64,000 nt of DNA from contig NZ_CP061169.1 in the NCBI RefSeq assembly GCF_011751765.2, forward strand, positions 3,348,001 to 3,412,000. Direction: 5' to 3'. The stretch comes from Paramicrobacterium chengjingii (GTDB lineage Bacteria > Actinomycetota > Actinomycetes > Actinomycetales > Microbacteriaceae). Every line of letters begins with the position of its first letter. Positions within the stretch are counted from its first letter, which is position 1. A model generated the notes under the pieces. The model saw only the letters and a program-made list of their open reading frames with translations, ran no database searches and was not told where the DNA came from. The translations under genes and the position numbers were made by a program. Shown here one piece after another: positions 1-13,610 of this stretch.

Positions 1-34
1 AGTGAGCACTCGTGTTGCTGATGGCATCCGTCAT
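1..34 (-). CDS. Start of a CDS running off the left edge
   Basis: The ATG at 34-32 overlaps the TGA stop of the upstream permease gene (33-31) as ATGA, and a GGAGG-type ribosome site lies about nine bases before it. Only the first eleven residues (MTDAISNTSAH) are inside the window, so the product cannot be named. Translational coupling makes it the next gene of the ABC transporter operon. If the cluster is sulfoglycolytic, a glycosidase or an isomerase is expected here or just beyond. Confidence 0.55.
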   Translation of the reverse strand, partial: MTDAISNTSAH

Positions 35-867
35 TTGACCGCGCCTCCTGTCAGACCGCGCACAAGCCAGCGCTGCGCGACGATGGTGAGAATGATTGCG
101 GGAAGGGAGATGAGCGTGCTCGCAGCCATGAGACCGCCGTAGTCGCTCGAGCCTTGCCCGATGAAGTTGAACGCGATCACGGGCAGCGGCATGGTGTTCG
201 AGCTGGCCAGCGCGAGGGCGAACAGAAAGTAGTTCCACGAGAAGATGAAGCTCAGCGTGATGGCGACCGAGATGCCGGGCGTCACGAGCGGAAGCACCAC
301 CTGCATGAACCGTTGCCCCGGGCTGCACCCGTCGATCAGCGCTGCCTCCTCAAGGCTGCGCGGAATCTCTTCGTAGAAGGGAATGAGCAGCCAGATGCAC
401 AGCGGCAGCGTGATGATGAGGTGGGCAGCGATCAGCACAGCGAAGTTGAGCACATCGTTCGACGTTGCACCGATCTTCATCGACATGATGAAGAAGGGAA
501 CGACGAACAGCACACCGGGGGCCATGCGCGCCAGAAGCGTGCTGAAGCCGATGCCCGGGATGGTGCGCCGGGCGATGACGTAGGCCGCCGGAATGCCGAA
601 CAGCAGTCCGAGAATGGTGGAGCCGCCCGCGATGATGAAGCTGTTGCGAATGTAGTAAATGAAGTCGAACCGCTCGAACAGGTTCGTAAAGTTGTCGAGC
701 GTCAGCGGCGTGCCAATGTTGAAGATGCTGCCGGTGATGTCGACGTTGCTGCGGAACGCCGACCACAGCATAAACAGCACGGGCACAAAGAAGATTAGCG
801 CCGCCACGATGTATGCGACGTAGGTCAGCGCGTAGGTGCGCCGACGATTTCTCGTACTAGTCGACAT
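31..867 (-). CDS. Carbohydrate ABC transporter permease, MalG/LacG-like
   Basis: Inner-membrane permease of 278 residues with about six hydrophobic segments. The permease loop includes EEAALIDGCSPGQRF, the EAA motif that contacts the ATPase. The start at 867 is chosen because AGGAG sits six bases upstream and a typical short polar N-terminus follows; the open frame extends seven codons further without a ribosome site. It overlaps the preceding permease gene by 11 bases, so the two permeases are translationally coupled. With the second permease and the lipoprotein it forms a CUT1-type sugar importer. No ATPase is visible, so it may lie to the left or be a shared MsiK-type ATPase as in many actinomycetes (inference). 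Confidence 0.9.
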   Translation of the reverse strand: MSTSTRNRRRTYALTYVAYIVAALIFFVPVLFMLWSAFRSNVDITGSIFNIGTPLTLDNFTNLFERFDFIYYIRNSFIIAGGSTILGLLFGIPAAYVIARRTIPGIGFSTLLARMAPGVLFVVPFFIMSMKIGATSNDVLNFAVLIAAHLIITLPLCIWLLIPFYEEIPRSLEEAALIDGCSPGQRFMQVVLPLVTPGISVAITLSFIFSWNYFLFALALASSNTMPLPVIAFNFIGQGSSDYGGLMAASTLISLPAIILTIVAQRWLVRGLTGGAVK

Positions 868-1795
868 CGGTACTCCTCTTTCGCACAACGGTGAAGATGG
901 CGGCGATCAGAATGACCAGCACAAACAGGCTGAGCTGCAGAGCGGCAGCGTAGCTGGGCTCTTGATCGATGAACGCCGCGCGATACCCATACACGTTGAG
1001 GGTGTTCGTCGCATTGACCGGGCCACCCTGGGTCATGATGTAGATGGTGTCGAAGAAGCGGATCAGGTCGACGGTGCGCAGCAGCATGGCGACGAGCAGC
1101 ACCGAGCGCAGCAGCGGCAGCCCCACAAAGAACGCCTTCTTGATCGGCCCGGCACCATCGATGGATGCTGCCTCGAACGGTTCGCTCGGCAATGACCGGA
1201 TGCCGGCAGAGATAATGAGCGCCATAAACGGCGTCCACTGCCAGATGTCGACGATCGCAATGGACCACGGAGCCATCTCCCGACTGCCCAGCCACACCAC
1301 GGGGTCGAGGCCGATCGCCTGCAGAATCTGGTTTGCCGCCCCGAGTGTCGGGTCGTAGATGAGCATCCACACGAGGGCGACCGCCACCGAGGCGGTGATC
1401 GCTGGAATGAGCAGAAGCCCCTGAAAAATGGCGCGCCCGGGAACGTCACGGCTCAGCAGGTAACCGAGGCCGAGCCCGAGAATCGTCTCGACAACAAGGC
1501 ACACGATAAACAGCTGCAGTGTGACGAAGAGCGAGTACCAGAATTCGGAGTTCTGGAACATCAGAACGAAGTTGTCGAACCCCACGAACCCGCTGTTGTT
1601 CCCCGCGATGTCCTGATCAGTCAGCGAGAGCCAGACGGTGTAGAGCACTGGTATGAGAACCAGCCCCACCGTCGCCACGAGCGCTGGGATGATGAACGGA
1701 AGCGTGCCCCGGGCCACGGGGTCGACATGTCGTCGGCCCCGTGCCGCCGGGCGGCGCTGGTCCCCTTTTGTGACAATGGTCCGCGTCGTTGACAT
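857..1795 (-). CDS. Carbohydrate ABC transporter permease, MalF/UgpA-like
   Basis: Second membrane subunit of the sugar importer, 312 residues. A polar N-terminus of about 30 residues leads into the first membrane helix (PFIIPALVATVGLVLIPVLY). The EAA loop reads EPFEAASIDGAGPIKKAFF. The gene starts five bases after the stop of the substrate-binding lipoprotein and overlaps the MalG-like gene, an arrangement typical of CUT1 operons. The substrate is inferred only from the neighbours, which point to a sulfonated hexose or its glycoside. Confidence 0.9.
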   Translation of the reverse strand: MSTTRTIVTKGDQRRPAARGRRHVDPVARGTLPFIIPALVATVGLVLIPVLYTVWLSLTDQDIAGNNSGFVGFDNFVLMFQNSEFWYSLFVTLQLFIVCLVVETILGLGLGYLLSRDVPGRAIFQGLLLIPAITASVAVALVWMLIYDPTLGAANQILQAIGLDPVVWLGSREMAPWSIAIVDIWQWTPFMALIISAGIRSLPSEPFEAASIDGAGPIKKAFFVGLPLLRSVLLVAMLLRTVDLIRFFDTIYIMTQGGPVNATNTLNVYGYRAAFIDQEPSYAAALQLSLFVLVILIAAIFTVVRKRSTDVD

Positions 1796-1800
1796 ATGCG

Positions 1801-3102
1801 TTATTTCTTATCCAACTGTTTGGTGAGTTCGGTTTGGATTTCCTTCGCCGCTTCTTCTGCCGTTGCGTCGCCGAGAATCACCTTTCCGATGGCATTGCCC
1901 AGGGTCTCGCGCATGCTCGGCGCCTTGGTGCCGACCGGCCCGACCTCGGTGTTGCCGTTCTTCTGAATGTCGGCAACGGCCTCGAGCCACTGCTTCTCTG
2001 TCTCGCTCGAGAAGTTCTCAACGTAGCTCGGGTCGGTGGCGACCGAGTCACGCGGCGGAGCGATCTCCGCCTTCGTCAGCTCAAGCTGAGTCTCGGGAGA
2101 CGTCGCCCACTGCAAGAACTGCCACGCGGCATCCTTCTTCTCAGAGAATGGCGACATCGTCACGCCCCACGACAGAGCCGTCGGGGCTGCCTCGACCGAC
2201 CCTGCCGGCATCTTCGCAACGCCGACGGAATCGCTCACCGTGCTCTTCTCTTCATCGAACACCGAATTCAGCTCGTTACTCGACTCCAGTGACATCGCTA
2301 CCTTGCCCTGTGCGAACAGGTTGGACGACTCCGTGAAGCTGTAGTTAATGACGCCCTTCGGGCCAAAGTCGCGGGCAAGCGTCGCATACTCGTCGATGGC
2401 CTTGATGGCGCCGGGCTGATCGAAGTTGGCCGTGCCGTCTTCCTTCGTCCACTCGAGGCCTTCGCCGTGGAAGAACGGACCGAAGTCGAAGGCAATCGCC
2501 GCAGCAGCACCACGCAGGGTGATGGGCGTGATGTCGCCCTTCTCCTTAATCACCTTCGAGGCGGCCAGAACGTCTTCAATGGTCTCGGGAACCTCGAGCC
2601 CGAGCTCCTCGAACACGTCTGTGCGGTAGTACAGCACCGGTCCCTCAATGTTGATGGGCACGGCGATGACCTGGCCATCGGCATCCTTCATTCCATCGAT
2701 CGCCGAGGGAGAGAAATCGTCGACCTTGTACGAGTCAGGAGCCTCGGCCAGGTAGTCGTCGAGCGGCTGGTAGTACCCGGCGTCCGAAAACTGCGGGCCT
2801 TCGCGCGAGGGCAACGTCATGAAGACATCCATCGACGAGCTCTTCGACTGCAGGTTGAGCAGAATGCGGTCGCGCGCCTGCTGCTCGGCGAACGTCTGAA
2901 CATTGACCTTGATGCCGCTCTCTTCTTCGAACTGGCTGATGAGCGGCTCGAGGCCTCGCTGCCAGGGGTGGTTCGACAAGACGACGTTGATGGCGCCGCC
3001 GCTGTCTGAGGAGCCCTCTCCCGGGGATCCACATGCTGTCGCCGTGGCGGCGATGACGGTAGCCGCCGCTATGGCGCCTACCCTCCGAACAATCTTGGAC
3101 AT
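1801..3102 (-). CDS. Extracellular sugar-binding lipoprotein of the ABC importer
   Basis: Solute-binding protein of 433 residues. The N-terminus MSKIVRR, a hydrophobic stretch and a lipobox ending at Cys24 (TATAC-GSP) mark a lipoprotein anchored outside the membrane. The mature part matches the SBP_bac_1 (MalE-like) family: NVVLSNHPWQRGLEPLI near the start and WQFLQWATSPETQ late in the chain. A GGAGG site precedes the ATG. It is the first transporter gene, 48 bases after the kinase gene. A sulfoquinovosyl-glycerol or sulfoquinovose ligand is an inference from context; ligand residues cannot be judged by eye. Confidence 0.9.
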   Translation of the reverse strand: MSKIVRRVGAIAAATVIAATATACGSPGEGSSDSGGAINVVLSNHPWQRGLEPLISQFEEESGIKVNVQTFAEQQARDRILLNLQSKSSSMDVFMTLPSREGPQFSDAGYYQPLDDYLAEAPDSYKVDDFSPSAIDGMKDADGQVIAVPINIEGPVLYYRTDVFEELGLEVPETIEDVLAASKVIKEKGDITPITLRGAAAAIAFDFGPFFHGEGLEWTKEDGTANFDQPGAIKAIDEYATLARDFGPKGVINYSFTESSNLFAQGKVAMSLESSNELNSVFDEEKSTVSDSVGVAKMPAGSVEAAPTALSWGVTMSPFSEKKDAAWQFLQWATSPETQLELTKAEIAPPRDSVATDPSYVENFSSETEKQWLEAVADIQKNGNTEVGPVGTKAPSMRETLGNAIGKVILGDATAEEAAKEIQTELTKQLDKK

Positions 3103-3151
3103 CGTTCCTCCTTGATCGATTTCTCTTGGTGTTTGTGTGTGTTGCGACGCG

Positions 3152-4243
3152 CTAGGGGAGCGCGACGAGGGGGGAAAGCCAGTCGTGAAACGAGCGCAGG
3201 TCGCCCGGTTCTGAAGAACGCCATTTCTCGGGGACGGAGCGCACGCGGCCGCCGACGTCGACGAGCGGAATGGCTGCGGTCTCGCCGCTGCGTGCGAGCC
3301 CGACCATCACGTCTGTCGGCCCCTGGGCGTCGACAAGCCAGCCGCCAGCGAGTTCGCCGAGCTGCTGAGCTTCGCGTGCATCGACGGGGCTGATCAGTGC
3401 CGAGTTGCAGCGCTGCGCGGTGCCCAGCACTTCGCCGCGTGCCGTGACGTCGAGGGTGTCGGATGCCGCCTGCGCGAGCACCCGCGCGATGCCGCCCTGG
3501 ATGAGCCGCGTGTGGTTTTGCGCCTTCACAGGCTGCCGTGTCAGCTCGGGAGCGACGCCCTCGCTCACGATCACGAACGCCCGCCCGTTCGCCGTGAGCA
3601 CCCGATCGATCTCGGCAAGCGTGGCGTCGAGGTCAAACGGAATCTCCGGTGTGAGAACGAGGTCTGCCGCGTGCTCCGGGTCGTGGTCGTGAAAGCTTGC
3701 TGCGAGCGCGAGCCATCCGGTGTCACGCCCCATCACCTCGACGATGCGCACCTTCTCGACACTGACCATGGCCTCGTGGTCGCGTGCCATATCGGTAGCG
3801 GTGGCAGCAAGATACCGTGCAGCAGAGGGGAACCCGGGGCTGTGGTCGATGCGCTCGATGTCGTTGTCGATGGTTTTCGGGATGCCGACAACGCGCAGAT
3901 TCGTGTTGCGCTGCCGTCCCCGCGTGGAAATCGCATCGAGAAAGGCCATCGTGCCGTTGCCACCGATGAGCGCGAGCGCCGTGACGCCGGCACTGTCGAG
4001 GTTCTCGACGATCGCGTCGAGGTCGTCGCTGGTCACGGCCCGGCGGCCTCCCCTCAGCCACGACCCGGTGCGCTGCAGGTCAGCATCCGCGGGTCGCTCG
4101 GTCGTGAGTCTTCCGTCGACGAGGGCGTCAGGGCCTCCGCGTGCGAACAGCACGGGTGTCTCCCCAACGGCACGCATGAACCCCGCAAGACTGCGGTTCA
4201 CGACAGCCGTTGGGGCGCCCGTCTGAGCAATGGCAATGGTCAC
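3152..4243 (-). CDS. Phosphofructokinase-family (PfkA-type) sugar kinase, possible sulfofructose kinase
   Basis: 363-residue member of the PFK-A fold. Visible motifs are GGNGT at 94-98 (GGDGS in ATP-PFK, GGDDT in PPi-PFK), PKTIDND at 122-128 and MGRDTGW at 171-177. The Asn in GGNGT replaces the usual metal-binding Asp, while the following Gly fits an ATP rather than PPi enzyme. The start overlaps the aldehyde dehydrogenase stop as ATGA. Sitting with a YihT-like aldolase, it is the natural candidate to phosphorylate 6-deoxy-6-sulfofructose at C1. From memory, a sulfo-EMP variant using a PFK-type kinase rather than PfkB-type YihV has been reported in Arthrobacter. An ordinary 6-phosphofructokinase is the alternative. 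Confidence 0.82.
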   Translation of the reverse strand: MTIAIAQTGAPTAVVNRSLAGFMRAVGETPVLFARGGPDALVDGRLTTERPADADLQRTGSWLRGGRRAVTSDDLDAIVENLDSAGVTALALIGGNGTMAFLDAISTRGRQRNTNLRVVGIPKTIDNDIERIDHSPGFPSAARYLAATATDMARDHEAMVSVEKVRIVEVMGRDTGWLALAASFHDHDPEHAADLVLTPEIPFDLDATLAEIDRVLTANGRAFVIVSEGVAPELTRQPVKAQNHTRLIQGGIARVLAQAASDTLDVTARGEVLGTAQRCNSALISPVDAREAQQLGELAGGWLVDAQGPTDVMVGLARSGETAAIPLVDVGGRVRSVPEKWRSSEPGDLRSFHDWLSPLVALP

Positions 4244-5691
4244 GGTGTCGCCGTTCGAGTCGCGATCGTGCGGAAGTGCTGGTGTGCTTCAAGACCCTGA
4301 CGGCCGCCCTCGTAGCCGACGCCCGAGAGGCCAACGCCGCCGAAGGGTGCGCCGGGATAGTTGGGAGTTGCCGTGTTGATGCCCATGATTCCGGCGCGCA
4401 ACTCGGCGACGACGGCATCCGCTCTGCCCGGGTCTTCGGTGCAGACGTAGCTGGCGAGGCCGTAGCCCGATGAGCGCTGCAGAGCCAGGGCCTCGTCGAG
4501 ATTGTCGTAGACGATGACGCCGGCCGCGGGGCCGAACACCTCGTCGGCGACGAGCGTCGACGTCGCCGGCGCGTTCATGACGAACTGCGGGGCGGCGTAG
4601 TGCCCGGCTGCCGGAAGCTCGGCCTGCGCGAGCAATGCCTGGCCGCCCGCCGCGGTGGCGTCGCTGACGAGCGCTGCGACGCGCGCCGGGTCGTTCGCCG
4701 GGGCGAGAGGCCCGAGGTCGGTCGCAGCCTCGCGGGGGTCGCCGACGACGAGCTTCGAGGCGGCAGCCGTGAGCGCGTCGCGAAAGTCACCCTCGAGCGA
4801 CCGCGGAATGAGCACGTTGTTCGCCCCGATGCACGACTGGCCGTTGTTGCGAAACTTGGCGATCATCAGAGTGTCGACGGCCTGCTGCACGTTTGCGTCG
4901 TCGAGAACGACGAATGAGGCGTTGCCACCCAGCTCCATCACCGCGGGGGTGAAGCGAGCAGCGATCTGCTCGTTGATGATGCGGCCCACGCGTGTGGATC
5001 CCGTGAACGAGACGGCGTCGACCCGGTCGAGCCAGGGGGTGACGACGTCGCTGGGGGAGCCAAGAACCGTGTTGACGACGCCGGCCGGAACAAACCGGTC
5101 GAGCAGGTCGGAGAGCCGCAGTGACGAGAGCGCGGCAAGCTCGGCGGCACGAAAGACAACGGTGCAGCCGGCGGCGAGCGCTGCGGCGATCTTGCGCGCG
5201 GGGATCGAGATGGGAAAGTTCCACGGAGTGACGACAGCAACGATGCCCATGGGCTGCGGCTGCACACGGTGCTCGATGCCGGGGATCACGGCGAAGTGCT
5301 CGTCGCGCTGGGCAAGCAGCAGGTCGGCGAAGGCTTCGAAGTACACCGCAGAGAAGGTGATCTCGCCCTGAGCCTCGGCGAGCCGCTTGCCCGTTTCGGT
5401 GCTGAGCAGCCAGGCCCAACTCGACTCGTCTGTCGCCGCAGCCTCGTCGCGCAGCGCTGCCGCGATCGCACGCAGAACGGCTGCTCGTTCGTCGACGCTC
5501 GTGGCGGCCCAGGGGCGGAACGAGCTCTGCGCTACGTCAACGGCGCGGAGTGCGTCGTCTGCAGTGCCCTGCAGCACATCGCCGAAAGCGTTCCCGTCGA
5601 TCGGGCTGATCGCGTCAATGCGACGACGTCCGGTGGAATCGGTGACGACCTCGCCGCCGATTCTGATGCCGCTTGCGGACAACTGATTCAC
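4240..5691 (-). CDS. NAD(P)-dependent aldehyde dehydrogenase, GabD-like; candidate sulfolactaldehyde dehydrogenase
   Basis: Full-length ALDH of 483 residues. It has the cofactor motif TPWNFP, FTGST, the general base in MELGGNASFVVLDDA and the catalytic Cys in NNGQSCIGANN. The GTG start at 5691 overlaps the stop of the enolase-superfamily gene as GTGA and has GGAGG upstream. Overall it resembles succinate-semialdehyde dehydrogenase. In sulfoglycolytic operons such enzymes oxidise 3-sulfolactaldehyde to sulfolactate, and here it is co-transcribed with the kinase and importer. That substrate is inferred from context; the family is secure. Confidence 0.88.
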   Translation of the reverse strand: MNQLSASGIRIGGEVVTDSTGRRRIDAISPIDGNAFGDVLQGTADDALRAVDVAQSSFRPWAATSVDERAAVLRAIAAALRDEAAATDESSWAWLLSTETGKRLAEAQGEITFSAVYFEAFADLLLAQRDEHFAVIPGIEHRVQPQPMGIVAVVTPWNFPISIPARKIAAALAAGCTVVFRAAELAALSSLRLSDLLDRFVPAGVVNTVLGSPSDVVTPWLDRVDAVSFTGSTRVGRIINEQIAARFTPAVMELGGNASFVVLDDANVQQAVDTLMIAKFRNNGQSCIGANNVLIPRSLEGDFRDALTAAASKLVVGDPREAATDLGPLAPANDPARVAALVSDATAAGGQALLAQAELPAAGHYAAPQFVMNAPATSTLVADEVFGPAAGVIVYDNLDEALALQRSSGYGLASYVCTEDPGRADAVVAELRAGIMGINTATPNYPGAPFGGVGLSGVGYEGGRQGLEAHQHFRTIATRTATP

Positions 5692-6824
5692 TGTGCCTCC
5701 TCCGAGAGATGTACAAGATGTGCAGAAAGGTGACTGAGATCGATGTCGACGCCGATGCCGGCGGCGCGCGGAACCCTGACGGTTCCGGTGGATGTCAGCA
5801 GATGGTCAACCGGCTCACGCACGGGGTTCTGCCTGATGTCCCACTCGAGCCACGGGGTTGTGGGGTTCGCTGCGGCGAGCTGAACCGAAATTGCTGTCGA
5901 GTACGCACCGTTGTAGAGGTGCGGCGCGACGAGGGTTCCGGATGCTTCGGCAGCAGCGACGACCCGCTGATACTCCGTGACTCCGCCGACTTTGCCCACG
6001 TCGGGCTGCACGATCGTGACGCCAGGCAGTGCGAGATAGGGCTCGAACGCGTCGGCACCGTAGAGGTTCTCTCCCGTGGCGACCGGGATGCCGGTTTCGC
6101 CGAACACGTGGCCGAGCTGCTCGGGGCGGTCGCCCGTCACCGGCTCTTCGATCCACTCGACGCCGAAGTCGCGAAGCAGGGGCGCCATCGCGATGGCTTC
6201 GTCGGGGGTCCACCCCTGGTTGGCGTCGCCGAAGAGGCGAAACTCCTCACCGAGCATCCGCCGTGCGCTGGAGAGATTCTCTTCATCGCGTTCGCGCCCG
6301 AAGCCCAGCTTCACCTTGGCCGCCGTGAGGCCGAGCTCGAGGCAGCGTTCGGCCGATTCGTCAACGCCGCTGGGGCCAAGGCTCGAGCCATAGACGGGAA
6401 TCTCCGTCAGCGGGTTGTCGCTCAGAAGCGCGGAAAGCGAGACGCCGCGCTCGGTGGCGGCGCGCAGCCAGAACGCCTGGTCGATGGCACTGATCGCCTG
6501 GTACACCGGCCCGATCGCACCCCATTGGCGCGCCACACGCGTCAATGACGAGAGCAGCAGCTCGTGAACCTCGGCGGTGTCGGTGAAGCTGCGCCCGACC
6601 AGAAGCGGGGCCACGCCTTCTGTCACTGTCGCGACGCGTTCGCGCCACCCCCATGACGGGTAGTTCACCCAGGTCTCCCCCGTCGAGACCGTGCCGTCGT
6701 CGAATGAGACGTCGACGAGAAACATCACTCTGTAGCCGAGGGCGCCAAACGACATGGCGACGCCCGTCGTCACCGGCGCGCGGAAGACACGGCATGTGAC
6801 GGCCGTCACGACGCTGCCCGACAT
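5688..6824 (-). CDS. Enolase-superfamily enzyme, mandelate racemase subgroup
   Basis: 378 residues from the ATG at 6824, where homology-like sequence begins; a start at 6869 would add 15 residues, and neither has a clear ribosome site. The active site is complete: K170-V-K172, metal ligands D200, E226 and E252, the D275/H302 dyad, and E327. This set defines the mandelate racemase subgroup, mostly acid-sugar dehydratases, racemases or epimerases. It is the first gene of the minus-strand operon, directly after the DeoR operator. No enolase-superfamily step belongs to the known sulfo-EMP route, so its role is open. Possibilities are dehydration of a sulfo-sugar acid or interconversion of a related sugar. 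Confidence 0.85.
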   Translation of the reverse strand: MSGSVVTAVTCRVFRAPVTTGVAMSFGALGYRVMFLVDVSFDDGTVSTGETWVNYPSWGWRERVATVTEGVAPLLVGRSFTDTAEVHELLLSSLTRVARQWGAIGPVYQAISAIDQAFWLRAATERGVSLSALLSDNPLTEIPVYGSSLGPSGVDESAERCLELGLTAAKVKLGFGRERDEENLSSARRMLGEEFRLFGDANQGWTPDEAIAMAPLLRDFGVEWIEEPVTGDRPEQLGHVFGETGIPVATGENLYGADAFEPYLALPGVTIVQPDVGKVGGVTEYQRVVAAAEASGTLVAPHLYNGAYSTAISVQLAAANPTTPWLEWDIRQNPVREPVDHLLTSTGTVRVPRAAGIGVDIDLSHLSAHLVHLSEEAQ

Positions 6825-6855
6825 GGTCACATGTGGGGTCGAGACGCAGAGTTGA

Positions 6856-6870
6856 TCGTTTTCTAACATT
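6856..6870. promoter_or_regulatory. Putative DeoR operator, copy 1
   Basis: TCGTTTTCTAACATT lies in the 98-base gap between the DeoR gene and the enolase-superfamily gene. It matches TCGATTTCTCACATT at 7756-7770 in 13 of 15 positions, same strand. Two near-identical words in the two promoter regions of one cluster suggest one repressor controls both arms. Confidence 0.55.
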
Positions 6871-6922
6871 GCATGCAGTGTTGCACGGAGTTGCACCGCC
6901 GTCAACCTTGCCGACTGAAAAG

Positions 6923-7720
6923 TTACGGAAGCACGAAAGTCACGCCGACCGCCGTGATCGTGTCGGCGATCTCGGCATCCCACGCGTTGTCCGTCGCAAT
7001 GCGCGACACCCGGTCGAGCCCGCAGACGCGCACGGCGCCGCTGGCGTTCGCCTTTGTCGAATCCACGGCGAGAATCACTTCGCCCGCCGCGTCGATCATT
7101 GCGCGCTTCGTCGCCAGCTCCACCGAACTGTGCACGTACAGGCCATCGGCATTCACGGCACTGGCGCCGAGCAGCAGCACGTCGATTCGCAGGTCCCGCA
7201 GCGCTGCGACAGCTCCGGGGCCCACCATGGCCTGGTTCTCATGCAGCAGGTCGCCGCCAACGCCGATCACGCGCAGTTCCGGCCATTCCAGCATGCTGGC
7301 TAGCACGGGCACGGAGTGCGAGATGACGCATCCGGTGAACTCCGGCGCGAGCTCAAGGGCGCAAACGTGGGTTGTCGTACCAGCGTCGACGCCCAGCACT
7401 CCTTCACGCGGAACGACGGACTTCACTGCCTCGGCGACACGCAGCTTCGCACGGGAGTTGCTCTGGGTTCTGCTCGAGAATCCGGCCGGCGATTGACGCC
7501 CCGCGGGGAGGCGCGCTCCCCCGTGCACAAGCTCAAGCTCACCCTCGTCTGCCAGCTGCTTGAGGTCGCGCCGCACCGTCATCTCGGCGACGGCGAACTC
7601 TTCACTCAGGGCATGAACGGCCACGTGTCCGTCACGAAAAAGCGACTCGAGAATGAGAATTCTGCGCCGCTCCGCACCGCCATGACGCAATGATTCTCCC
7701 AGTGTGCTCACACTCTGCAT
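6923..7720 (-). CDS. DeoR-family transcriptional repressor
   Basis: 265 residues from the ATG at 7720; a GTG at 7711 is also possible. The N-terminal winged helix-turn-helix contains the DeoR signature (VAVHALSEEFAVAEMTVRRDLKQL). The rest is the sugar-phosphate sensor fold with GVDAGTTT and a late VDSTK. It is divergent from the aldolase gene, and both flanks carry the same operator word. In enterobacteria the sulfoquinovose regulon is controlled by a DeoR-family protein (CsqR/YihW), which fits. The effector is inferred to be a sulfo-sugar or its phosphate. Confidence 0.9.
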   Translation of the reverse strand: MQSVSTLGESLRHGGAERRRILILESLFRDGHVAVHALSEEFAVAEMTVRRDLKQLADEGELELVHGGARLPAGRQSPAGFSSRTQSNSRAKLRVAEAVKSVVPREGVLGVDAGTTTHVCALELAPEFTGCVISHSVPVLASMLEWPELRVIGVGGDLLHENQAMVGPGAVAALRDLRIDVLLLGASAVNADGLYVHSSVELATKRAMIDAAGEVILAVDSTKANASGAVRVCGLDRVSRIATDNAWDAEIADTITAVGVTFVLP

Positions 7721-7750
7721 GCTAGCAAGGCTCTGATAGAGTGCGAACAC

Positions 7751-7770
7751 AATGTTCGATTTCTCACATT
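7751..7770. promoter_or_regulatory. Putative DeoR operator, copy 2
   Basis: The 20-base stretch has perfect inverted ends AATGT (7751-7755) and ACATT (7766-7770). It contains the same 15-base word found at 6856-6870. It lies between the divergent deoR and aldolase starts, 18 bases before the aldolase ATG, so binding would block that gene and probably deoR itself. Confidence 0.6.
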
Positions 7771-7788
7771 CTGAGCCAAAGGATTCTC

Positions 7789-8652
7789 ATGTCTGACCTG
7801 ACAACCCTCGCCCGGCCGTCCGGCGGATTCGCCATGCTCGCTGTCGACCAGCGTGAGGCCCTGCGCGACATGATGCTCCGCGCCCGCGGGGTGCAGATCA
7901 GCGACGCCGACATGACGCAGTTCAAGGTGTCCGCCACGCGCGCGCTCACCCCCTATGCGTCAGCCGTGCTGATCGACCCCGAGTTCGCGTGGGACGCCAT
8001 CGTCGATCAGGATGCTGTCGCCCCGACGTGCGCTCGCATTGCCGCCGCCGACCATTTCGTCGCCGGCGCGGGCGAGTTCGTGCGCGAAGCATCCTTCGAC
8101 ACGACCCTCGACTACGAGGCGATCACGAAGCAGGGCGCGAAGGCGCTGAAGCTTCTCGTGCTCTGGCGCGAAGATCAAGACGCGCAGAAGCGCATTGATG
8201 AGGTCACAGCGTTCGTCGACGCGTGCCGCGAGCTCGACCTAGTCTCGATCATCGAGCCCGTGGCGCGGGCACGCTGGGACGGTGCCCCGAGCGACGTCGA
8301 GGCCGGGGTGCTCGCAGCAGCCCGTGAGCTCGGTGATCTCGGTGCCGACATTTACAAGGCAGAAGTTCCGTTCAAGGCGGCCGAGAGCGATGAGCGCGTC
8401 TTTGACGCCTGCCGCGAGCTGACCGACACCATCAGTGGACCGTGGGTCGTACTCTCGTCCGGGGTCGACGCCGACAGGTTCCCGGATGCCGTGGGAATCG
8501 CGTGCCGAGCGGGAGCATCCGGCTTCCTCGCCGGCCGTGCCGTCTGGGCCTCGGTGCTCGGAGCGGACTCGGTCGAAGACGAGCTTCGCGCAACATCCAT
8601 TCCGCGGCTTGAGCGTCTCGGCACGATCGTCGACGACAACATCCGCAACTGA
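7789..8652 (+). CDS. yihT: YihT-like 6-deoxy-6-sulfofructose-1-phosphate aldolase (class I)
   Basis: 287 residues from the ATG at 7789, with AAAGGA upstream. The chain follows E. coli YihT closely as I remember it: SGGFAMLAVDQREA, ALKLLVLWR, LVSIIEPV, LGDLGADIYKAE and AGASGFLAGRAVWASV occur in order. Lys190 in the IYK motif matches the Schiff-base Lys193 of YihT, and Arg250 in LAGRAVW aligns with Arg253, which I recall as sulfonate-binding. The reaction would give DHAP plus 3-sulfolactaldehyde. LacD tagatose-bisphosphate aldolase is the nearest alternative but lacks these blocks. This gene is the main reason to call the cluster sulfoglycolytic. Confidence 0.85.
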   Translation: MSDLTTLARPSGGFAMLAVDQREALRDMMLRARGVQISDADMTQFKVSATRALTPYASAVLIDPEFAWDAIVDQDAVAPTCARIAAADHFVAGAGEFVREASFDTTLDYEAITKQGAKALKLLVLWREDQDAQKRIDEVTAFVDACRELDLVSIIEPVARARWDGAPSDVEAGVLAAARELGDLGADIYKAEVPFKAAESDERVFDACRELTDTISGPWVVLSSGVDADRFPDAVGIACRAGASGFLAGRAVWASVLGADSVEDELRATSIPRLERLGTIVDDNIRN

Positions 8653-8667
8653 CGCGAGCCCCCGACC

Positions 8668-9390
8668 GTGACCTGGCTCCTTGCGCTGTGTGCTGTCACG
8701 CTTGGGGCCGCGCTGCAGCGCGTGACCGGGCTGGGCTTCACGCTCATCTCGGGTCCGCTTCTCGTGTTGGTGCTGAACCCGTTTGACGGCATTGTTCTCG
8801 CCAACATCCTCTCGGGAATCATCGCCGCGATCGTTCTCATTCGAACCCTTCGGCATGTGCAGTGGCGAACGGCAGCAAAATTGTCGATCGGCACTGTCGT
8901 CGGTGTTCCGATCGGAGCAGCCGTCGTCTATGCGTTGGATGCTGACATGCTTCTGATCCTCGTGGGCGCGCTGACGACAATCGCTGTCGTGATTGCGCTG
9001 ACGAGACGCCCCATGCCGGTGTTCCGGGGCACGCCCGGTGCGATCTTCGCGGGGTCGCTCTCCGGGTTCAGCAATGTCACGGCCGGCGTTGGAGGCCCGG
9101 CGCTGGCCATGTTCGGGGCGGCGACGAAGATGCCGATGTCAACGTTCGTGCCGACGATTCAGGTGGTGGCGCTGCTCACGAATGCTCTGTCGGTGGCGGC
9201 GAAGCCGCACATGTCGCTGCCCTGGCCGCTCGTGATCGGCGCCGTCTGCTGTGTGCTGGTCGGCCTCGTGGCCGGCTCATTTCTGCAGCGCGTCATCACC
9301 CCGACCCGCGCCCAGACGCTCGCGCTCACCCTCGCCCTGCTTGGCTCGCTCGCGGCAACGGCCCGCGGCATCTTCGCCCTCTTCGTCTGA
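8668..9390 (+). CDS. TauE/SafE-family permease, candidate sulfonate or sulfite exporter
   Basis: 240 residues from a GTG at 8668, 15 bases after the aldolase stop. It has about seven or eight hydrophobic segments and two internal repeats: GAALQRVTGLGFTLISGPLLVL near the start and GSLSGFSNVTAGVGGPALAMF in the second half. These are the paired signature of the TauE/SafE (DUF81) family. Members export sulfite, sulfoacetate or other C2-C3 sulfonates, and they commonly accompany sulfoglycolysis genes to remove sulfolactate. Co-direction with the aldolase supports that role. Confidence 0.87.
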   Translation: MTWLLALCAVTLGAALQRVTGLGFTLISGPLLVLVLNPFDGIVLANILSGIIAAIVLIRTLRHVQWRTAAKLSIGTVVGVPIGAAVVYALDADMLLILVGALTTIAVVIALTRRPMPVFRGTPGAIFAGSLSGFSNVTAGVGGPALAMFGAATKMPMSTFVPTIQVVALLTNALSVAAKPHMSLPWPLVIGAVCCVLVGLVAGSFLQRVITPTRAQTLALTLALLGSLAATARGIFALFV

Positions 9391-9468
9391 GAACCTCGCG
9401 AAGAATGTTTGGCTAAACGCAGTAACCGCAAGGCGATTGCGAATAATGCATTAAACGGAGCGTCTGTA

Positions 9469-9930
9469 ATGTCCGCAACAGATGCGCTCGCATCTTCGAC
9501 CCACAGTGCGAGCAATACACAGCAGCTCAGCCGTATCTACGACCTGCTCACCGCTGACGAAGCACTCAACCCGTCACCACGGTATTACCTCGTTGGGTCG
9601 GTCGAAAACCATCCCGTCGAGCTGCCCGAAGAGATCTATCAGGTGCTTCGCCGCGTCGTGGCGGCGATACGTACGGGCCTATCAGTAACGATCTCGCCGA
9701 CTTCGCAGACTCTGACCACGCAGCAGGCGGCCGACCTGCTGGGCATCAGCCGACCAACACTCATTAAGATCCTCGACGAAGACAAGCTGCCGTACACCCG
9801 CTCAGGCTCGCATCGGCGGATCGCACTCATCGACGTGTTCGATTACCGCGAGAGGCGACGCCAGGAGCAATACGCTGCGATCGAGGCTCTCTCGGTTGAG
9901 ATCGACGAAGCGGCATCGACCACACTCTGA
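9469..9930 (+). CDS. Excisionase-type HTH antitoxin of a PIN-domain toxin-antitoxin pair
   Basis: 153 residues from the ATG at 9469 (GGAG upstream); an in-frame TTG at 9409 is less likely. The C-terminal half holds an excisionase/MerR-like helix-turn-helix (TTQQAADLLGISRPTLIKIL, then SHRRIALIDVFDYRER). The first half is polar. A PIN-domain reading frame follows 76 bases downstream, the usual order for this actinobacterial pair. The antitoxin frame is intact although the toxin is broken. Confidence 0.8.
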   Translation: MSATDALASSTHSASNTQQLSRIYDLLTADEALNPSPRYYLVGSVENHPVELPEEIYQVLRRVVAAIRTGLSVTISPTSQTLTTQQAADLLGISRPTLIKILDEDKLPYTRSGSHRRIALIDVFDYRERRRQEQYAAIEALSVEIDEAASTTL

Positions 9931-10006
9931 CCGAACTCCGAGAAGCACGGAAGGCAACGGCCGCGAAGCGCCGATCTCACCGGACGCACTGACATAAGAT
10001 GAGTCC

Positions 10007-10438
10007 ATGTTTGCCGCTGTCCTCAACACCAGCGTGCTTTGGCCGAGTCTTCAACGGGACTTCCTACTGTCCTTGGCTGCCGAGGGCAGCTATTGTCCAA
10101 TGTAGAGCACAGCGATTCTCGATGAGCTGGTGTACCACGAGGCAAAGAAGTTGGTTGCGCGAGGGACGCCTGAGTATGAAGCGGAGAGTGCCGCTCAGCG
10201 GCTGATCGATCATATGTCGCGAGCGTTCGATGACTCGCTCGTTACCGGCTGGGAGCCACCAGAGGGTGCCTTCGGTCTCCCAGATCCCGATGACGAGCAC
10301 GTTGTCGCAACCGCGGTGATGGGTAGTGCTGAAGTCATCGTCACAGAGAACCTGAGGCACTTCCCAGCGACAACGCTCCGGACAGCAACCGCCAAGCTTC
10401 TTTCCATTGCGCCAGGTCTGCGCGACGCACTCCAGTGA
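10007..10438 (+). pseudogene. PIN-domain toxin, inactivated by an internal stop
   Basis: Reading from the ATG at 10007 gives a PIN-domain N-terminus ([15 protein letters not shown]) that stops at TAG 10103-10105. It then continues in the same frame as STAILDELVYHEAKKL and, at the end, LPDPDDEHVVATAV and VTENLRHFP. Two lesions are visible: the stop falls where family members usually have Trp before STAILDEL, and the first catalytic Asp (LDTSVLW in relatives) is Asn. The later acidic residues remain. The toxin is therefore probably dead, unless the stop is read through. Confidence 0.8.
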
Positions 10439-10517
10439 CAGGAGAGAGTTCGGCAGCTGCCTGACACTGCTTTCTCCTCAGCATGTGAATCAGCATCGAG
10501 CTCATCACTCAGACCGC

Positions 10518-10550
10518 GGTGGGTCCCCGCACGGTGTGCGGGGACCCACC
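10518..10550. terminator. Strong hairpin between convergent genes
   Basis: A perfect 15-bp stem (10518-10532 pairing with 10536-10550, arms GGTGGGTCCCCGCAC and its complement) closes on a 3-base loop. It lies between the plus-strand PIN relic and the minus-strand MmpS-like gene, so it can end transcription from both sides. There is no long T tract, as is common in high-GC actinomycetes. Confidence 0.7.
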
Positions 10551-10595
10551 CTCGACTCATTTCATACGCCAGATTTCTACTGGCGAGACGCCTAA

Positions 10596-11285
10596 CTATT
10601 TGTCGTCGTCATCGTCCCCAAATGACGAGGTAGAGCACGTAGCAGAAGCGAGTTCACCCGACGACGTTTGCTCGGAGACCACCTCTCCGTCGACAGTGAT
10701 TGAACACGAAATCTCGCCAGTGTCTCCCAGACCGTTCATTGCGATGAGTGAATAGCTAGACCAGTCAAAATCGCCGCCCGCCTTGACTGTGATCTCCTTC
10801 GTGAACGGCAGGGTCGTGCCTGTAGCCTGCTCTGTTCCTGCTGACCCGTCGTTGTAGGTGGAGTACGTCACAGACGCATCCTTAGCGTCTCCCGTGACCT
10901 CATACACAACGACAATCTCCTGGCTTGCCTTCGCCTCATCCTCCGCGATCGTTTTGTCGATGGACTCGCTCACCGCAGTCGCGAACACCGCGGTGTAGAC
11001 CATCGCCATGACGATCGAGAGGATCAACGCGACTGCCGAGATGATCGTGCCGGCGATGGCTGAGCCCTTTCGCTTTCCCTTCAAGCAAAGCGCAATAATT
11101 CCGAGGACTAATCCCACAAACGCAATAAAGCCTGACGCGTAATTGACAAATGGAATGAAGGCGCCGACGATCGCGACAATTCCGACTACAAGCGCAGCTA
11201 CCCCGAGTCCGTTGCCAGTCTTCTGCTCGGGTGGTTGCGGCTGTGCGGGTGCGAACTGTGGGTCTACAGAAGGGGGAATAGTCAT
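10596..11285 (-). CDS. Membrane protein with DUF4190-like N-terminus and MmpS-like C-terminus
   Basis: 229 residues. A Pro/Gln-rich cytoplasmic lead (PQFAPAQPQPPEQK) is followed by three hydrophobic segments between about 27 and 105, the third after CLKGKRKGSAIAG, as in DUF4190 proteins. The exported C-terminal part (VVVYEVTGDAKDASVTYST to CSITVDGEVVSEQ) looks like the MmpS beta-sandwich, and the chain ends in an Asp run. The neighbouring gene ends in the same domain. Function is unknown; a surface or envelope-sensing role is a guess. No clear ribosome site precedes the ATG at 11285. Confidence 0.75.
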   Translation of the reverse strand: MTIPPSVDPQFAPAQPQPPEQKTGNGLGVAALVVGIVAIVGAFIPFVNYASGFIAFVGLVLGIIALCLKGKRKGSAIAGTIISAVALILSIVMAMVYTAVFATAVSESIDKTIAEDEAKASQEIVVVYEVTGDAKDASVTYSTYNDGSAGTEQATGTTLPFTKEITVKAGGDFDWSSYSLIAMNGLGDTGEISCSITVDGEVVSEQTSSGELASATCSTSSFGDDDDDK

Positions 11286-11480
11286 AATCTAAATCTGGCA
11301 GACAACTGTTAGCCAAACTGGCGTTTTACCCCCGGTCTGGGGACGATTCGTGCGCAATAATTCTTTCCAGACGCATCTCGTTGCTCGGTCCTGTCTGCCA
11401 CGAGCACCCTGCCGACAATTTAACTGTGACAGCGTGATGCTCCTTGAGAAGTTCGAGGTGAGAGAAGCGATTCGTTGTGA

Positions 11481-12740: not shown

Positions 12741-12959
12741 TGATACCGCAGAAGGCTCGATCTGGTTATTCGATGAGCCTGTGCGTCTACAGGTTTCAAG
12801 CTAACCAGCCGATTACGTCGTGTCGTTCCCCAGTTCTGGGCGCCCCCAAGCAGGGCACACACGCATGACCGTGAACGTCACGATGACTCGATCGTTCCGG
12901 AGCAGCCTGGACCATTGCGATATCCAGAGTCCGCGGGAAAGCTCAGCACGTGTTCAAGC

Positions 12960-13240
12960 CCGTAGCAAACAGCCAATCTCGTCAGCGCACGGGGATGTGG
13001 AGGGGCCGACCTTCGTGACCACCAGGGCTGCTGCGACGTTCGCGCGGCGCACCGCGTCGGGTAACGCGACCCCACGCAACAGCGCCGCCGTAAGCACGCC
13101 GCCATGCGCGTCGCCCGCACCGTTTGAATCGACAGCGGTGACCTCGATCGCCGGGACTGTCTCAGCGACAGCTCTCCGTCACGGACGATGACCCAACACT
13201 CGGATCATGCTGCTCAGGCGTTCAGTCTGAAGCTATTGGC
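12960..13240 (-). pseudogene. Relic of a PfkB-family kinase gene (C-terminal part)
   Basis: The 519-base gap between 12741 and 13259 holds no intact gene. About 280 bases of it align base-for-base with the 3' part of the intact pfkB gene at 36740-37708, including the region coding for the AVDSNGAGDAHGG active-site loop. A gap near 13180 breaks the frame, and the N-terminal two-thirds is missing. It is a decayed paralogue, probably from an older copy of a cluster like the one at 36-41 kb. Confidence 0.75.
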
Positions 13241-13259
13241 GCGACAGCACACGCGCGCA

Positions 13260-13532
13260 TTACTCGTCGTGATTCTTCTCAAGAATCTCGACGAGTCGTC
13301 GGATCACATGCTCGGATTCCTCACCCACAGCAGACAGCGTCACACTCTCGCCCTGGCCGATGCCCAATGAGATCACCGACAACAGACTCGCAGCATCTAC
13401 TGGAGTTCCACCCGACTTCGACACACGTATCGGAATGCCGCTAGCCTGGGCAGCCTGCACAAAAAGTTTGGCAGGCCGCGCGTGCAACCCTTCGCTGGAC
13501 CCCACGGCAACTGTTCGTTCTGTCATGTTCAT
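13260..13532 (-). CDS. ptsH: HPr phosphocarrier protein
   Basis: 90 residues from the ATG at 13532, which has AAGGAG seven bases upstream; the longer frame has no ribosome site. The active His18 is in SSEGLHARPAKLF, and the segment AASLLSVISLGIGQGE matches the regulatory-Ser region of HPr. HPr carries phosphate from enzyme I to the EIIA of the sugar PTS. No ptsI is in the window, so enzyme I must be supplied elsewhere. It is the last gene of the PTS cluster, and a dedicated copy suggests the island brings its own carrier. Confidence 0.93.
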   Translation of the reverse strand: MNMTERTVAVGSSEGLHARPAKLFVQAAQASGIPIRVSKSGGTPVDAASLLSVISLGIGQGESVTLSAVGEESEHVIRRLVEILEKNHDE

Positions 13533-13610
13533 CACGTTCTCCTTGAATGTCATTCGGCGGAACACTCGCCGCCCCGTTGCCGGACCGTAGTTGTGAGCCT
13601 CACTACCGAG

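What the first reader, a model, noticed from the sequence alone, without database searches (positions are those of the whole stretch)
1..9390. Probable sulfoglycolysis (sulfoquinovose-type) cluster built on a PFK-family kinase
A YihT-like aldolase keeping the Schiff-base Lys190 and the Arg250 equivalent, a TauE/SafE exporter, a GabD-type dehydrogenase, a sugar ABC importer and a DeoR repressor sit together. This is the gene set for SQ to DHAP plus 3-sulfolactaldehyde, oxidation to sulfolactate, and export. The kinase is PfkA-type, unlike PfkB-type YihV of E. coli; I recall a PFK-type variant from Arthrobacter. The glycosidase and isomerase are absent from the window but the operon continues off its left edge. 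Sulfo-EMP known steps are established; assignment here is by reading.
Basis: partly seen in the sequence, partly recalled or inferred. Interest (0 to 1): 0.85.

Follow-up and report, generated by a model that had tools for sequence, protein, structure and literature searches.

The report
Isomerase-free sulfosugar operon with phosphofructokinase-type kinase
A soil bacterium carries a gene cluster that looks like a sulfosugar-eating pathway but has zinc dehydrogenases where the usual sugar isomerase should be, plus an unexplained enolase-family enzyme that might free the sulfur; if right, it eats a sulfonated sugar other than the well-known plant one.

Summary
The genes are as described; Lys190 and Arg250 of the aldolase are right. 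The genome (Paramicrobacterium, one contig) gave the left flank: zinc dehydrogenase MDR1, a LacD-like DUF2090 aldolase, a GntR regulator and zinc dehydrogenase MDR2, but no glycosidase and no known SQ isomerase. Family searches of the genome found no YihS-type or SqvD-type isomerase, no convincing sulfoquinovosidase and no SuyB. All PFK-linked aldolases but one form a clade beside actinobacterial sulfo-EMP YihT aldolases, next to E. coli YihT. Nine carrier genomes share MDR1, PFK, YihT-type aldolase, importer and DeoR. So the core (sulfoketose to 1-phosphate to DHAP plus sulfolactaldehyde) is supported by descent. Sulfoquinovose as substrate is not; a dehydrogenase-fed sulfosugar, perhaps a sulfohexitol, fits better. 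PFK-type sulfofructose kinases are known (SqiK), from Firmicutes, not Arthrobacter. MR/MLE homologues recur with a similar GntR and sulfonate- or tricarboxylate-type importers, and in Rhizobiaceae analogues directly before a TauE gene: possibly a new sulfolactate sulfo-lyase (untested). New variant of a known kind.

The parts
1..34 (-). 5' end of MDR1, zinc-dependent medium-chain dehydrogenase; the rest (L002 17033-18034), then DUF2090 aldolase, GntR-FCD regulator and MDR2, lie left of the window
   Evidence: ADH_N, ADH_zinc_N; found in all eight other carrier clusters read; zinc motifs present
31..888 (-). carbohydrate ABC permease 2
   Evidence: BPD_transp_1; 94-98% in three congeners, 75-76% in L061-L064, 53% in L065
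857..1795 (-). carbohydrate ABC permease 1
   Evidence: BPD_transp_1; conserved
1801..3102 (-). solute-binding protein, CUT1 type; best-scoring solved relatives are a sorbitol-type SBP (4rya), 5iai, then SmoF (7nbz)
   Evidence: SBP_bac_1
3152..4243 (-). PfkA-family (PF00365) kinase, proposed sulfoketose 1-kinase; GGNG + PKTIDND, ATP-type at the PPi/ATP-deciding glycine (role recalled)
4240..5691 (-). GabD-like aldehyde dehydrogenase, proposed sulfolactaldehyde dehydrogenase; R166, R281, C287
   Evidence: Aldedh 396 bits; 3jz4 265 bits; motifs
5688..6869 (-).
   Evidence: start by 393-aa homologue P0001
6923..7750 (-). DeoR-family regulator
   Evidence: HTH_DeoR and DeoRC
7789..8652 (+). YihT-clade class I aldolase (ORF from 7741), K190 and R250; proposed sulfoketose-1-phosphate aldolase
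8668..9390 (+). TauE/SafE (TSUP) exporter, for sulfolactate or sulfite
   Evidence: PF01925, 74 bits

Best explanation
A sulfoglycolytic operon of the sulfo-EMP type that needs no aldose-ketose isomerase. The ABC importer brings in a sulfonated sugar that is probably not sulfoquinovose. A zinc dehydrogenase (MDR1, with MDR2 as a second) oxidises it to a sulfoketose; the simplest substrate is a sulfohexitol. The PfkA-type kinase phosphorylates the 1-hydroxyl. The YihT-type aldolase splits the product to DHAP and sulfolactaldehyde. The GabD-like dehydrogenase makes sulfolactate, and TauE exports sulfolactate or sulfite. SHOWN by sequence: gene content, conservation, clade of the aldolase, no match in the genome to the known SQ isomerase families. 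INFERRED: every reaction, the sulfonate itself, the role of MDR1 as feeder (about 0.4 alone), and the role of the MR/MLE enzyme and the DUF2090 aldolase (open). The stated confidence is for the sulfoketose-1-phosphate core with an entry other than the known SQ isomerases.
For: Aldolase: 273-274 bits to YihT versus 63 or less to LacD structures. Its sister of 17 rows (91/88; the join itself only 84/70) holds the aldolases of two clusters with a PF07221 isomerase and a PfkB kinase (L037, L038) and 15 rows of unknown context; L065 and E. coli YihT come next, 7 LacD-like rows outside (100/97). Of 35 columns invariant in three sulfo-EMP aldolases but shared by fewer than half of 16 outgroup rows, 21 are kept in at least 7 of 8 PFK-cluster rows. 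Core across genera: L065 holds PFK, MDR1, two permeases, SBP, YihT-type aldolase and DeoR only; L064 adds GntR and MDR2. No PF07221 match in 5 of 9 carrier genomes, while both sulfo-EMP genomes match, and their proteins are 59-66% identical to E. coli YihS; no PF02952 in the window's genome. TauE in four Paramicrobacterium clusters and L062 and in five Rhizobiaceae analogues. A PF00365 kinase sits beside an L-fucose/arabinose-isomerase-family protein in Chlorohelix, as expected for SqiK (PMC9594981, passages).
Against: No sulfonate-binding residue of the aldolase could be tested: the YihT structure paper is not held. R250 of the aldolase has counterparts in DUF2090 proteins and R166/R281 of the dehydrogenase are shared with SSADH. 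The best NCBIfam model of the aldolase is the tagatose-bisphosphate-aldolase subfamily PRK12858 (160 bits, under its cut-off of 184). The kinase of L065 is only 38-40% identical and groups outside the window's kinase clade, as does the Chlorohelix one. ALDH and TauE are not in every cluster. The PF07221 genome search did not ring in its E. coli control although E. coli K-12 YihS scores 467 bits to that model; I cannot explain this, and it weakens the absence claim. Two carriers (G556, G589) have strong PF07221 proteins elsewhere, in stretches without this pathway's kinase or aldolase. A PF01261 gene near the operon is not excluded as an isomerase. Cereibacter pairs a YihT-type aldolase with a tartrate-dehydrogenase-family enzyme, which a carboxylate reading explains better. 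No sulfohexitol is known to me as a natural product (recall).
Confidence: 0.53

Rival explanations
1. It is an ordinary sulfoquinovose pathway: a hybrid of sulfo-EMP (YihT) and sulfo-EMP2 (PFK-type SqiK), with isomerisation by an unrecognised or housekeeping enzyme and uptake of free SQ; the MDRs do side work such as reducing sulfolactaldehyde.
For: Hybrid sulfo-EMP/EMP2 clusters are in print for Actinobacteria (PMC10599462, section 12 read; PMC12890257, passages). Aldolase clade. GabD and TauE as in Arthrobacter. The PF07221 search missed its E. coli control, and a PF01261 barrel gene lies near the operon.
Against: No PF07221 or PF02952 match, no convincing SQase in the genome; no isomerase of these families seen in the clusters read. 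The SBP gave no tblastn match to L037 or L038 at 1e-8. MDR1 is kept even in the smallest cluster. A Paracoccus MDR in a sulfosugar cluster did not act on sulfolactaldehyde (PMC12421959, passages); orthology to MDR1 not tested.
Confidence: 0.22
2. Carboxylate reading: the substrate is a seven-carbon sugar acid; MDR gives a keto acid, PFK its 1-phosphate, the aldolase DHAP plus tartrate semialdehyde, the dehydrogenase tartrate, and the MR/MLE enzyme (or a tartrate dehydrogenase) consumes it.
For: Cereibacter cluster has a TIGR02089 tartrate dehydrogenase (551 bits, cut-off 470) beside its YihT-type aldolase. MR/MLE enzymes need a carboxylate (family knowledge). A stand-alone MR/MLE homologue sits with a tripartite tricarboxylate transporter. 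A carboxylate carbon at C7 takes the place of the sulfur at C6 (inference).
Against: Aldolase clade sits beside sulfofructose-phosphate aldolases. TauE/TSUP has no role here. An SsuA-subfamily-like importer accompanies one stand-alone MR/MLE plus ALDH pair (below the model's cut-off).
Confidence: 0.12
3. A non-anionic hexitol (or a sugar 6-O-sulfate) pathway: hexitol to ketose to ketose-1-phosphate to DHAP plus glyceraldehyde (or glyceraldehyde sulfate).
For: SBP scores best with a sorbitol-type SBP. Sulfatases lie beside clusters in Neorhizobium (arylsulfatase) and L064 (choline-sulfatase model, 481 bits), and an FGE in Rhizobium.
Against: PFK keeps the arginines equivalent to R243 and R252 and has a conserved arginine beside the lost R162 site (roles recalled from E. 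coli PfkA), which fits an anionic group on the far end of the sugar. A plain hexitol gives TauE no work. Sulfate esters are usually cut before uptake (general knowledge).
Confidence: 0.1

Closest known systems
Sulfo-EMP of Arthrobacter spp. AK01/AK04 (YihS, YihV, YihT, GabD, TauE, ABC)
   Same: YihT-clade aldolase, GabD-like dehydrogenase, TauE (AK04), ABC importer; a DeoR-type regulator in the L037/L038 relatives
   Different: Window has a PfkA-family kinase in place of YihV and no YihS-type isomerase found; it adds two zinc dehydrogenases, an MR/MLE enzyme and a DUF2090 aldolase
Sulfo-EMP2 of Bacillus urumqiensis / Megamonas (SqvD, SqiK, SqiA) and hybrid sulfo-EMP clusters
   Same: PF00365 kinase in the place of the sulfofructose kinase
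   Different: No SqvD-family (PF02952) match in the genome and a class I rather than class II aldolase; orthology to SqiK could not be tested, since SqiK itself was not at hand
Sulfofucose pathway of Paracoccus wurundjeri (SfcH, SfcD, SfcF, SfcE)
   Same: An MR/MLE-superfamily enzyme and an ABC importer in a sulfosugar cluster; that cluster also holds a threonine-dehydrogenase-like MDR, a PF00294 kinase and a PF01791 aldolase of unknown role
   Different: Window MR/MLE is 26% identical to an SfcF-like protein of Sinorhizobium mexicanum and has KxK rather than KxN; no PF08450 lactonase or PF03328 aldolase among the operon proteins scanned
Rhizobiaceae plasmid clusters (two Shinella, Rhizobium, Neorhizobium, Sinorhizobium medicae), function unknown
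   Same: Shinella HZN7: homologous SBP and permeases (37-44%), MDR1 homologue (40%), MR/MLE (32%); in all five loci a kinase, a LacD-type aldolase and an MR/MLE gene with TSUP directly after it (in the Rhizobium locus the MR/MLE match comes in two pieces)
   Different: PfkB-family kinase and PRK12858-type aldolase instead of PFK and YihT; LacI instead of DeoR where annotated

Membership tests
Sulfo-EMP (YihS-YihV-YihT) | SQ isomerase YihS (PF07221) | tested here: not met
   0 matches in the whole genome; the two sulfo-EMP genomes G066 and G345 match in the same search. Caveat: the tool's E. coli control did not ring although K-12 YihS scores 467 bits
Sulfo-EMP (YihS-YihV-YihT) | YihV-type SF kinase (PF00294) in the cluster | tested here: not met
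   The cluster kinase is PF00365; no PfkB-family protein among the operon genes scanned
Sulfo-EMP (YihS-YihV-YihT) | YihT-clade class I SFP aldolase | tested here: met
   activity itself not tested
Sulfo-EMP (YihS-YihV-YihT) | Sulfoquinovosidase (GH31 YihQ or GH188) | tested here: not met
   One GH31 match, 29% to YihQ, without R301/W304/Y508 equivalents; best-scoring hit 26% to the Gfo/Idh/MocA protein of L037, which I took as a GH188 proxy without proof
Sulfo-EMP2 / hybrid | SqvD-type isomerase (PF02952) | tested here: not met
   0 matches in the genome; 3 of 14 control genomes ring, E. coli among them
Sulfo-EMP2 / hybrid | PF00365 kinase acting on sulfofructose | tested here: inconclusive
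   Family met and ATP-type motif met; substrate and orthology to SqiK not tested; the SqiK-like Chlorohelix kinase groups elsewhere in the tree
LacD tagatose-1,6-bisphosphate aldolase | Goes with LacD rather than YihT | tested here: not met
   63 bits or less to LacD versus 273-274 to YihT; TIGR01232 56 bits, cut-off 432, but PRK12858 subfamily 160 of 184 bits
GabD/SlaB sulfolactaldehyde dehydrogenase | Arg171/Arg289 pair of RlGabD | tested here: met
   R166 and R281 (pair from PMC10599462 passages); shared with SSADH, so not diagnostic
MR subgroup of the enolase superfamily | KxK, three acidic metal ligands, His-Asp dyad | tested here: met
   K185/K187, D215, E241, E267, D290, H317 conserved in 8 of 8 rows of this type aligned (residue roles recalled)
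SfcF sulfogalactonate dehydratase | Orthology to SfcF | tested here: not met
   26% to an SfcF-like protein of S. mexicanum, which is a proxy: the Paracoccus SfcF sequence was not at hand
SuyAB sulfolactate sulfo-lyase | SuyB (PF04295) in the genome | tested here: not met
   0 matches; 5 of 14 control genomes ring. That PF04295 covers SuyB is recalled

The most novel reading that the evidence does not exclude
The operon degrades a sulfonated hexitol (or another dehydrogenase-fed sulfosugar) completely: MDR, PFK and YihT-type aldolase give DHAP and sulfolactaldehyde, the dehydrogenase gives sulfolactate, and the MR/MLE enzyme is a new kind of sulfolactate sulfo-lyase that abstracts the alpha proton and expels sulfite, giving pyruvate; TauE exports the sulfite. 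Support: MR/MLE homologues occur in 5 of 5 other carrier genomes searched (no genomes without the cluster were searched for comparison). Where the sugar cluster lacks the gene (G416, G589) it lies elsewhere with a divergent GntR-FCD 47% identical to the window's and either TctC, TctA and TctB (SlcHFG of this family takes up sulfolactate in other bacteria, PMC5812351, passages) or an ABC importer with an SsuA-subfamily-like binding protein (116 bits, cut-off 164) plus an aldehyde dehydrogenase. In 5 of 5 Rhizobiaceae analogues read, TSUP directly follows the MR/MLE gene. The window's genome has no SuyB match.
Probability: 0.22. Interest if true: 0.85.

Novelty: new variant of a known kind. Interest (0 to 1): 0.6.

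Why it matters
The sulfoglycolytic EMP pathways that I read of start with isomerisation of sulfoquinovose. A conserved, isomerase-free version in several actinobacterial families would mean that soil holds sulfonated sugars other than sulfoquinovose and sulfofucose in amounts worth a dedicated operon, and that surveys that use YihQ, GH188 or YihS as markers miss these bacteria. If the MR/MLE enzyme releases sulfite, the enolase superfamily would gain a carbon-sulfur lyase reaction and the sulfur cycle a second route from sulfolactate to sulfite. Each step can be tested with single purified enzymes; sulfolactaldehyde and sulfogalactonate have been synthesised before (PMC12421959), other candidates would have to be made.

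Tried and rejected
LacD identity of the aldolase: rejected by score and tree; no true LacD sequence was in the tree. About 42% identical aldolases of other Microbacteriaceae (16 rows): outgroup only; those printed with such a neighbour (L039, L041, L044, L046) follow an FGGY-type kinase by eye, but L040 and L051-L054 do not show this or were not checked, so the label 'fggy42' in my scripts is loose. SQ entry genes on the left flank or elsewhere: searched and not found, with the E. coli control caveat for PF07221. MR/MLE as SfcF orthologue: rejected by 26% identity and the KxN/KxK difference, with S. mexicanum as proxy. SuyB-based sulfolactate breakdown: not found. SqiK by plasmid neighbours: Pusillibacter and Butyrivibrio kinases have a GGND motif and glycolytic or unrelated neighbours; the Chlorohelix one fits an SqvD-like context but groups outside the window's clade. 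Wider sampling for the PFK by class and phylum: 6 of 394 genomes at 1e-50 and 1 of 396 (the window's own) at 1e-70; Micromonospora and Pseudonocardia carriers are known here only from protein lists and shared contig lengths (each list shows the best 120 hits). Structure prediction was not used. Paper searches for a match in print: sulfoglycolysis with enolase superfamily (2 papers, listing only, neither on this by title), sulfofructose kinase with phosphofructokinase and sulfoglycolysis (0), sulfolactate with mandelate racemase (0), two of sulfofructose, sorbitol, polyol dehydrogenase (81 papers; none of the 12 shown holds sulfofructose), DUF2090 with aldolase (2; one read in passages, on inositol).

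In the PFK tree 36 of 120 listed hits were used. GC-bias ORF calling in my scripts is rough; gene ends in fetched loci are approximate, and the L061 and L062 MR/MLE stretches as cut each held one stop, cause not looked into.

Full report
What is there. The window lies in a one-contig genome of 3.62 Mb (C1:3348001-3412000). The MR/MLE protein is 99% identical to one named Paramicrobacterium chengjingii, so the organism is Paramicrobacterium (Microbacteriaceae). The left flank (L002) continues the operon with a zinc dehydrogenase (MDR1), a DUF2090/LacD-like aldolase, a GntR-FCD regulator and a second zinc dehydrogenase (MDR2). Gaps between the eleven minus-strand genes run from -32 to 53 bp; five of the ten are the 4-base overlap. 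No ATP-binding subunit is in the operon. Beyond it, on the other strand, lie an SDR, a GntR-UTRA, a PF01261 xylose-isomerase-like barrel and a CoA-transferase gene; none of them is found in the 3.2 kb that L033 holds past its MDR2.

The aldolase. It matches three YihT structures at 273-274 bits, a DUF2090 protein at 71 and LacD structures at 63 bits or less. Its best NCBIfam model is the LacD-type subfamily PRK12858, 160 bits, under the cut-off of 184. Identity to E. coli YihT is 49%, to the aldolases of two Microbacteriaceae sulfo-EMP clusters 53% and 52%; those three differ from each other as much (48-53%). It is sister, with weak support (84/70), to 17 rows (91/88) that include the two sulfo-EMP aldolases and 15 of unknown context. 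L065 and E. coli YihT lie just outside; seven LacD-like rows are the outgroup (100/97). The tool warned of long branches, E. coli YihT among them, and no true LacD was in the tree. The placement makes sulfofructose-1-phosphate, or an epimer, the first guess for the substrate. It is a guess by descent, not a test of the pocket; the paper on the YihT complex is not held.

The kinase. It is a PfkA-family protein near the short PPi-PFK subfamily model but under its cut-off (242 bits, cut-off 273). It has GGNG where Pusillibacter and Butyrivibrio kinases have GGND (that this place decides ATP or PPi is recalled). Of the 6-phosphate pocket of E. coli PfkA (recalled: R162, R243, H249, R252), R243 and R252 have arginine equivalents, R162 is lysine here and not conserved in the clade, H249 is threonine, and a conserved arginine two places on from the R162 site marks this group. 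The L065 kinase (38-40%) has these features but groups outside the window's clade. PfkA-family sulfofructose kinases are known: SqiK in Firmicutes (PMC9594981, passages). Hybrid clusters that mix sulfo-EMP and sulfo-EMP2 parts are in print (PMC10599462, section 12; PMC12890257, passages). So PFK beside YihT is not new in itself.

What is missing. Sulfo-EMP pathways as described need an isomerase, YihS (PF07221) or SqvD (PF02952). Neither family is matched in the window's genome. Of nine carrier genomes, five have no PF07221 match (the four Paramicrobacterium and G416), two have weak or partial ones (G613, G597), and two have strong ones (G556, G589) at other places; both sulfo-EMP genomes match, with proteins 59-66% identical to E. 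coli YihS. One control result goes against this: the search did not ring in its E. coli control, though K-12 YihS scores 467 bits to the model. Whether that control strain lacks yihS or the first look missed it I cannot say. E. coli YihS has no tblastn match in the window or L002. The two strong PF07221 genes of G556 and G589 sit among SDR, MR/MLE-like and other genes with no kinase or aldolase of this pathway in the stretch read. The one GH31 match to YihQ lacks the equivalents of R301, W304 and Y508 (roles recalled). The best-scoring hit to the Gfo/Idh/MocA protein of the L037 cluster is 26%; that this protein is a GH188 sulfoquinovosidase is my assumption. SuyB is not found.

What is conserved. 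The same cluster occurs in four Paramicrobacterium genomes (4 of the 34 genomes with an aldolase match among 398 of the family; a fifth genome of the genus, G001, has only the 40% type) and in five genomes of one other family of the class (Jiangellaceae by recalled placement of Phytoactinopolyspora). L061 and L062 have nearly all parts; L063 lacks ALDH, TauE and MDR2; L064 lacks MR/MLE, ALDH, DUF2090 and TauE; L065 keeps PFK, MDR1, the importer, the aldolase and DeoR only (tblastn at 1e-8). The shared minimum, importer plus MDR plus kinase plus aldolase, reads as: import, oxidise to a ketose, phosphorylate, cleave. That is why I put a dehydrogenase in the place of the isomerase and a sulfohexitol as the simplest substrate. 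The SBP scores best with polyol-type SBPs (4rya, 5iai; their ligands recalled) and then SmoF, which fits but does not prove it.

Analogues. On plasmids of Shinella (two), Rhizobium, Neorhizobium, Sinorhizobium medicae and Variovorax an MDR1 homologue (38-40%) sits with a mutually homologous SBP, two permeases, kinase and LacD-type aldolase; Shinella SBP and permeases are 37-44% identical to the window's, its kinase is PfkB family and its aldolase PRK12858 type. In the five Rhizobiaceae loci an MR/MLE gene is followed at once by TSUP; in the Rhizobium locus the MR/MLE match comes in two pieces; Variovorax has no MR/MLE match there and a TSUP on the other strand. Cereibacter has a homologous importer (39-44%) with an MDR2 homologue (40%), a YihT-type aldolase (54%), a PfkB kinase, an ALDH and a tartrate-dehydrogenase-family enzyme. 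The Paracoccus wurundjeri sulfofucose cluster also holds an induced threonine-dehydrogenase-like MDR without activity on sulfolactaldehyde, a PF00294 kinase and a PF01791 aldolase of unknown role and not induced (PMC12421959, parts 1-3 of 9 and passages). None of the annotated loci names an isomerase of the SQ kind in the stretch shown.

The MR/MLE enzyme. It has the full MR-type set and is not SfcF-like. Homologues at 41-45% stand apart in three places: G416 with TctC, TctA and TctB and a divergent GntR-FCD 47% identical to the window's; G589 and G597 with an ABC importer, an ALDH (40% to a sulfo-EMP cluster's ALDH) and a divergent GntR-FCD at 46-47%. The binding protein of the G589 importer scores best with the SsuA subfamily (116 of 164 bits); the G597 one was not scanned. 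G597 has an MR/MLE gene in its sugar cluster too, and this separate ALDH may make up for the one missing there. So the enzyme may act on a small acid made by the ALDH or taken up from outside, rather than on the six-carbon sugar. Sulfolactate fits: SlcHFG importers of the tricarboxylate type take it up in other bacteria (PMC5812351, passages), alpha-proton abstraction with loss of sulfite would give pyruvate, and TauE is a sulfite or sulfonate exporter family. Tartrate fits nearly as well. Against it: Variovorax has an IlvD/EDD-like protein nearby instead (by eye); the steady company of DUF2090 in the actinobacterial clusters (present with MR/MLE, absent without it, in those read) is not explained; and I searched no genomes without the cluster to see how common such MR/MLE genes are.

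Verdict. Observation confirmed; interpretation right about a sulfo-EMP-like core, not borne out on sulfoquinovose as far as the genome can tell, and incomplete. PFK as such is known; the isomerase-free entry and the MR/MLE module are what is new. Interest 0.6.

Noticed in passing
L069 (NZ_CP110115.1, Arthrobacter sp. YA7-1 plasmid) 4081-12149: SDR, DgoD-like MR/MLE (58% to a protein of S. mexicanum ITTG R7, a strain listed in print as a candidate sulfofucose degrader), DHDPS-family aldolase and SMP-30 lactonase in one run with PfkB kinase, YihT-type aldolase, SSADH and TauE: a possible sulfofucose ED branch joined to a sulfo-EMP branch, on a plasmid typed as conjugative.
   Followed up: partly
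L037 (G066:C70) 15-13702: Apparent sulfo-EMP cluster (PF07221, PfkB, YihT-type aldolase, ALDH, importer) next to galactarate-dehydratase-like (perhaps SuyB-like), sulfolactate-dehydrogenase-like and 2-hydroxyacid-dehydrogenase-like genes, all three under the NCBIfam cut-offs: perhaps SQ breakdown to sulfite in one Microbacteriaceae genome.
   Followed up: partly
L084 (Candidatus Chlorohelix allophototropha plasmid) 631-13149: PF00365-type kinase, L-fucose/arabinose-isomerase family protein, Gfo/Idh/MocA protein, SSADH, ABC importer and a nitrite/sulfite reductase in one run: a possible sulfo-EMP2-like cluster in Chloroflexota.
   Followed up: no
L076 15810-18951, L075 15800-16738 and L064 16678-18255: Arylsulfatase with sulfatase-modifying factor (Neorhizobium), FGE (Rhizobium) and a choline-sulfatase-model protein (P. 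halotolerans) lie beside three of the clusters; reason unknown.
   Followed up: no
window 9409-10438, +: HTH_17/excisionase-type protein followed by an ORF that by eye resembles a PIN-domain toxin: a possible toxin-antitoxin pair next to the cluster.
   Followed up: no
L002 11842-12615, + (left of the window): A PF01261 xylose-isomerase-like barrel gene 1.8 kb beyond the operon, among an SDR, a GntR-UTRA and a CoA-transferase gene; not found in the L033 flank. Not excluded as a sugar isomerase or epimerase.
   Followed up: partly
L034/L063 aldolase (Phytoactinopolyspora endophytica): The aldolase and the start of DeoR are interrupted by runs of N in the held record, so the cluster's aldolase could not be read whole.
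   Followed up: no
The PF07221 genome search does not ring in its E. coli control genome, although K-12 YihS scores 467 bits to the model; unexplained.
   Followed up: partly
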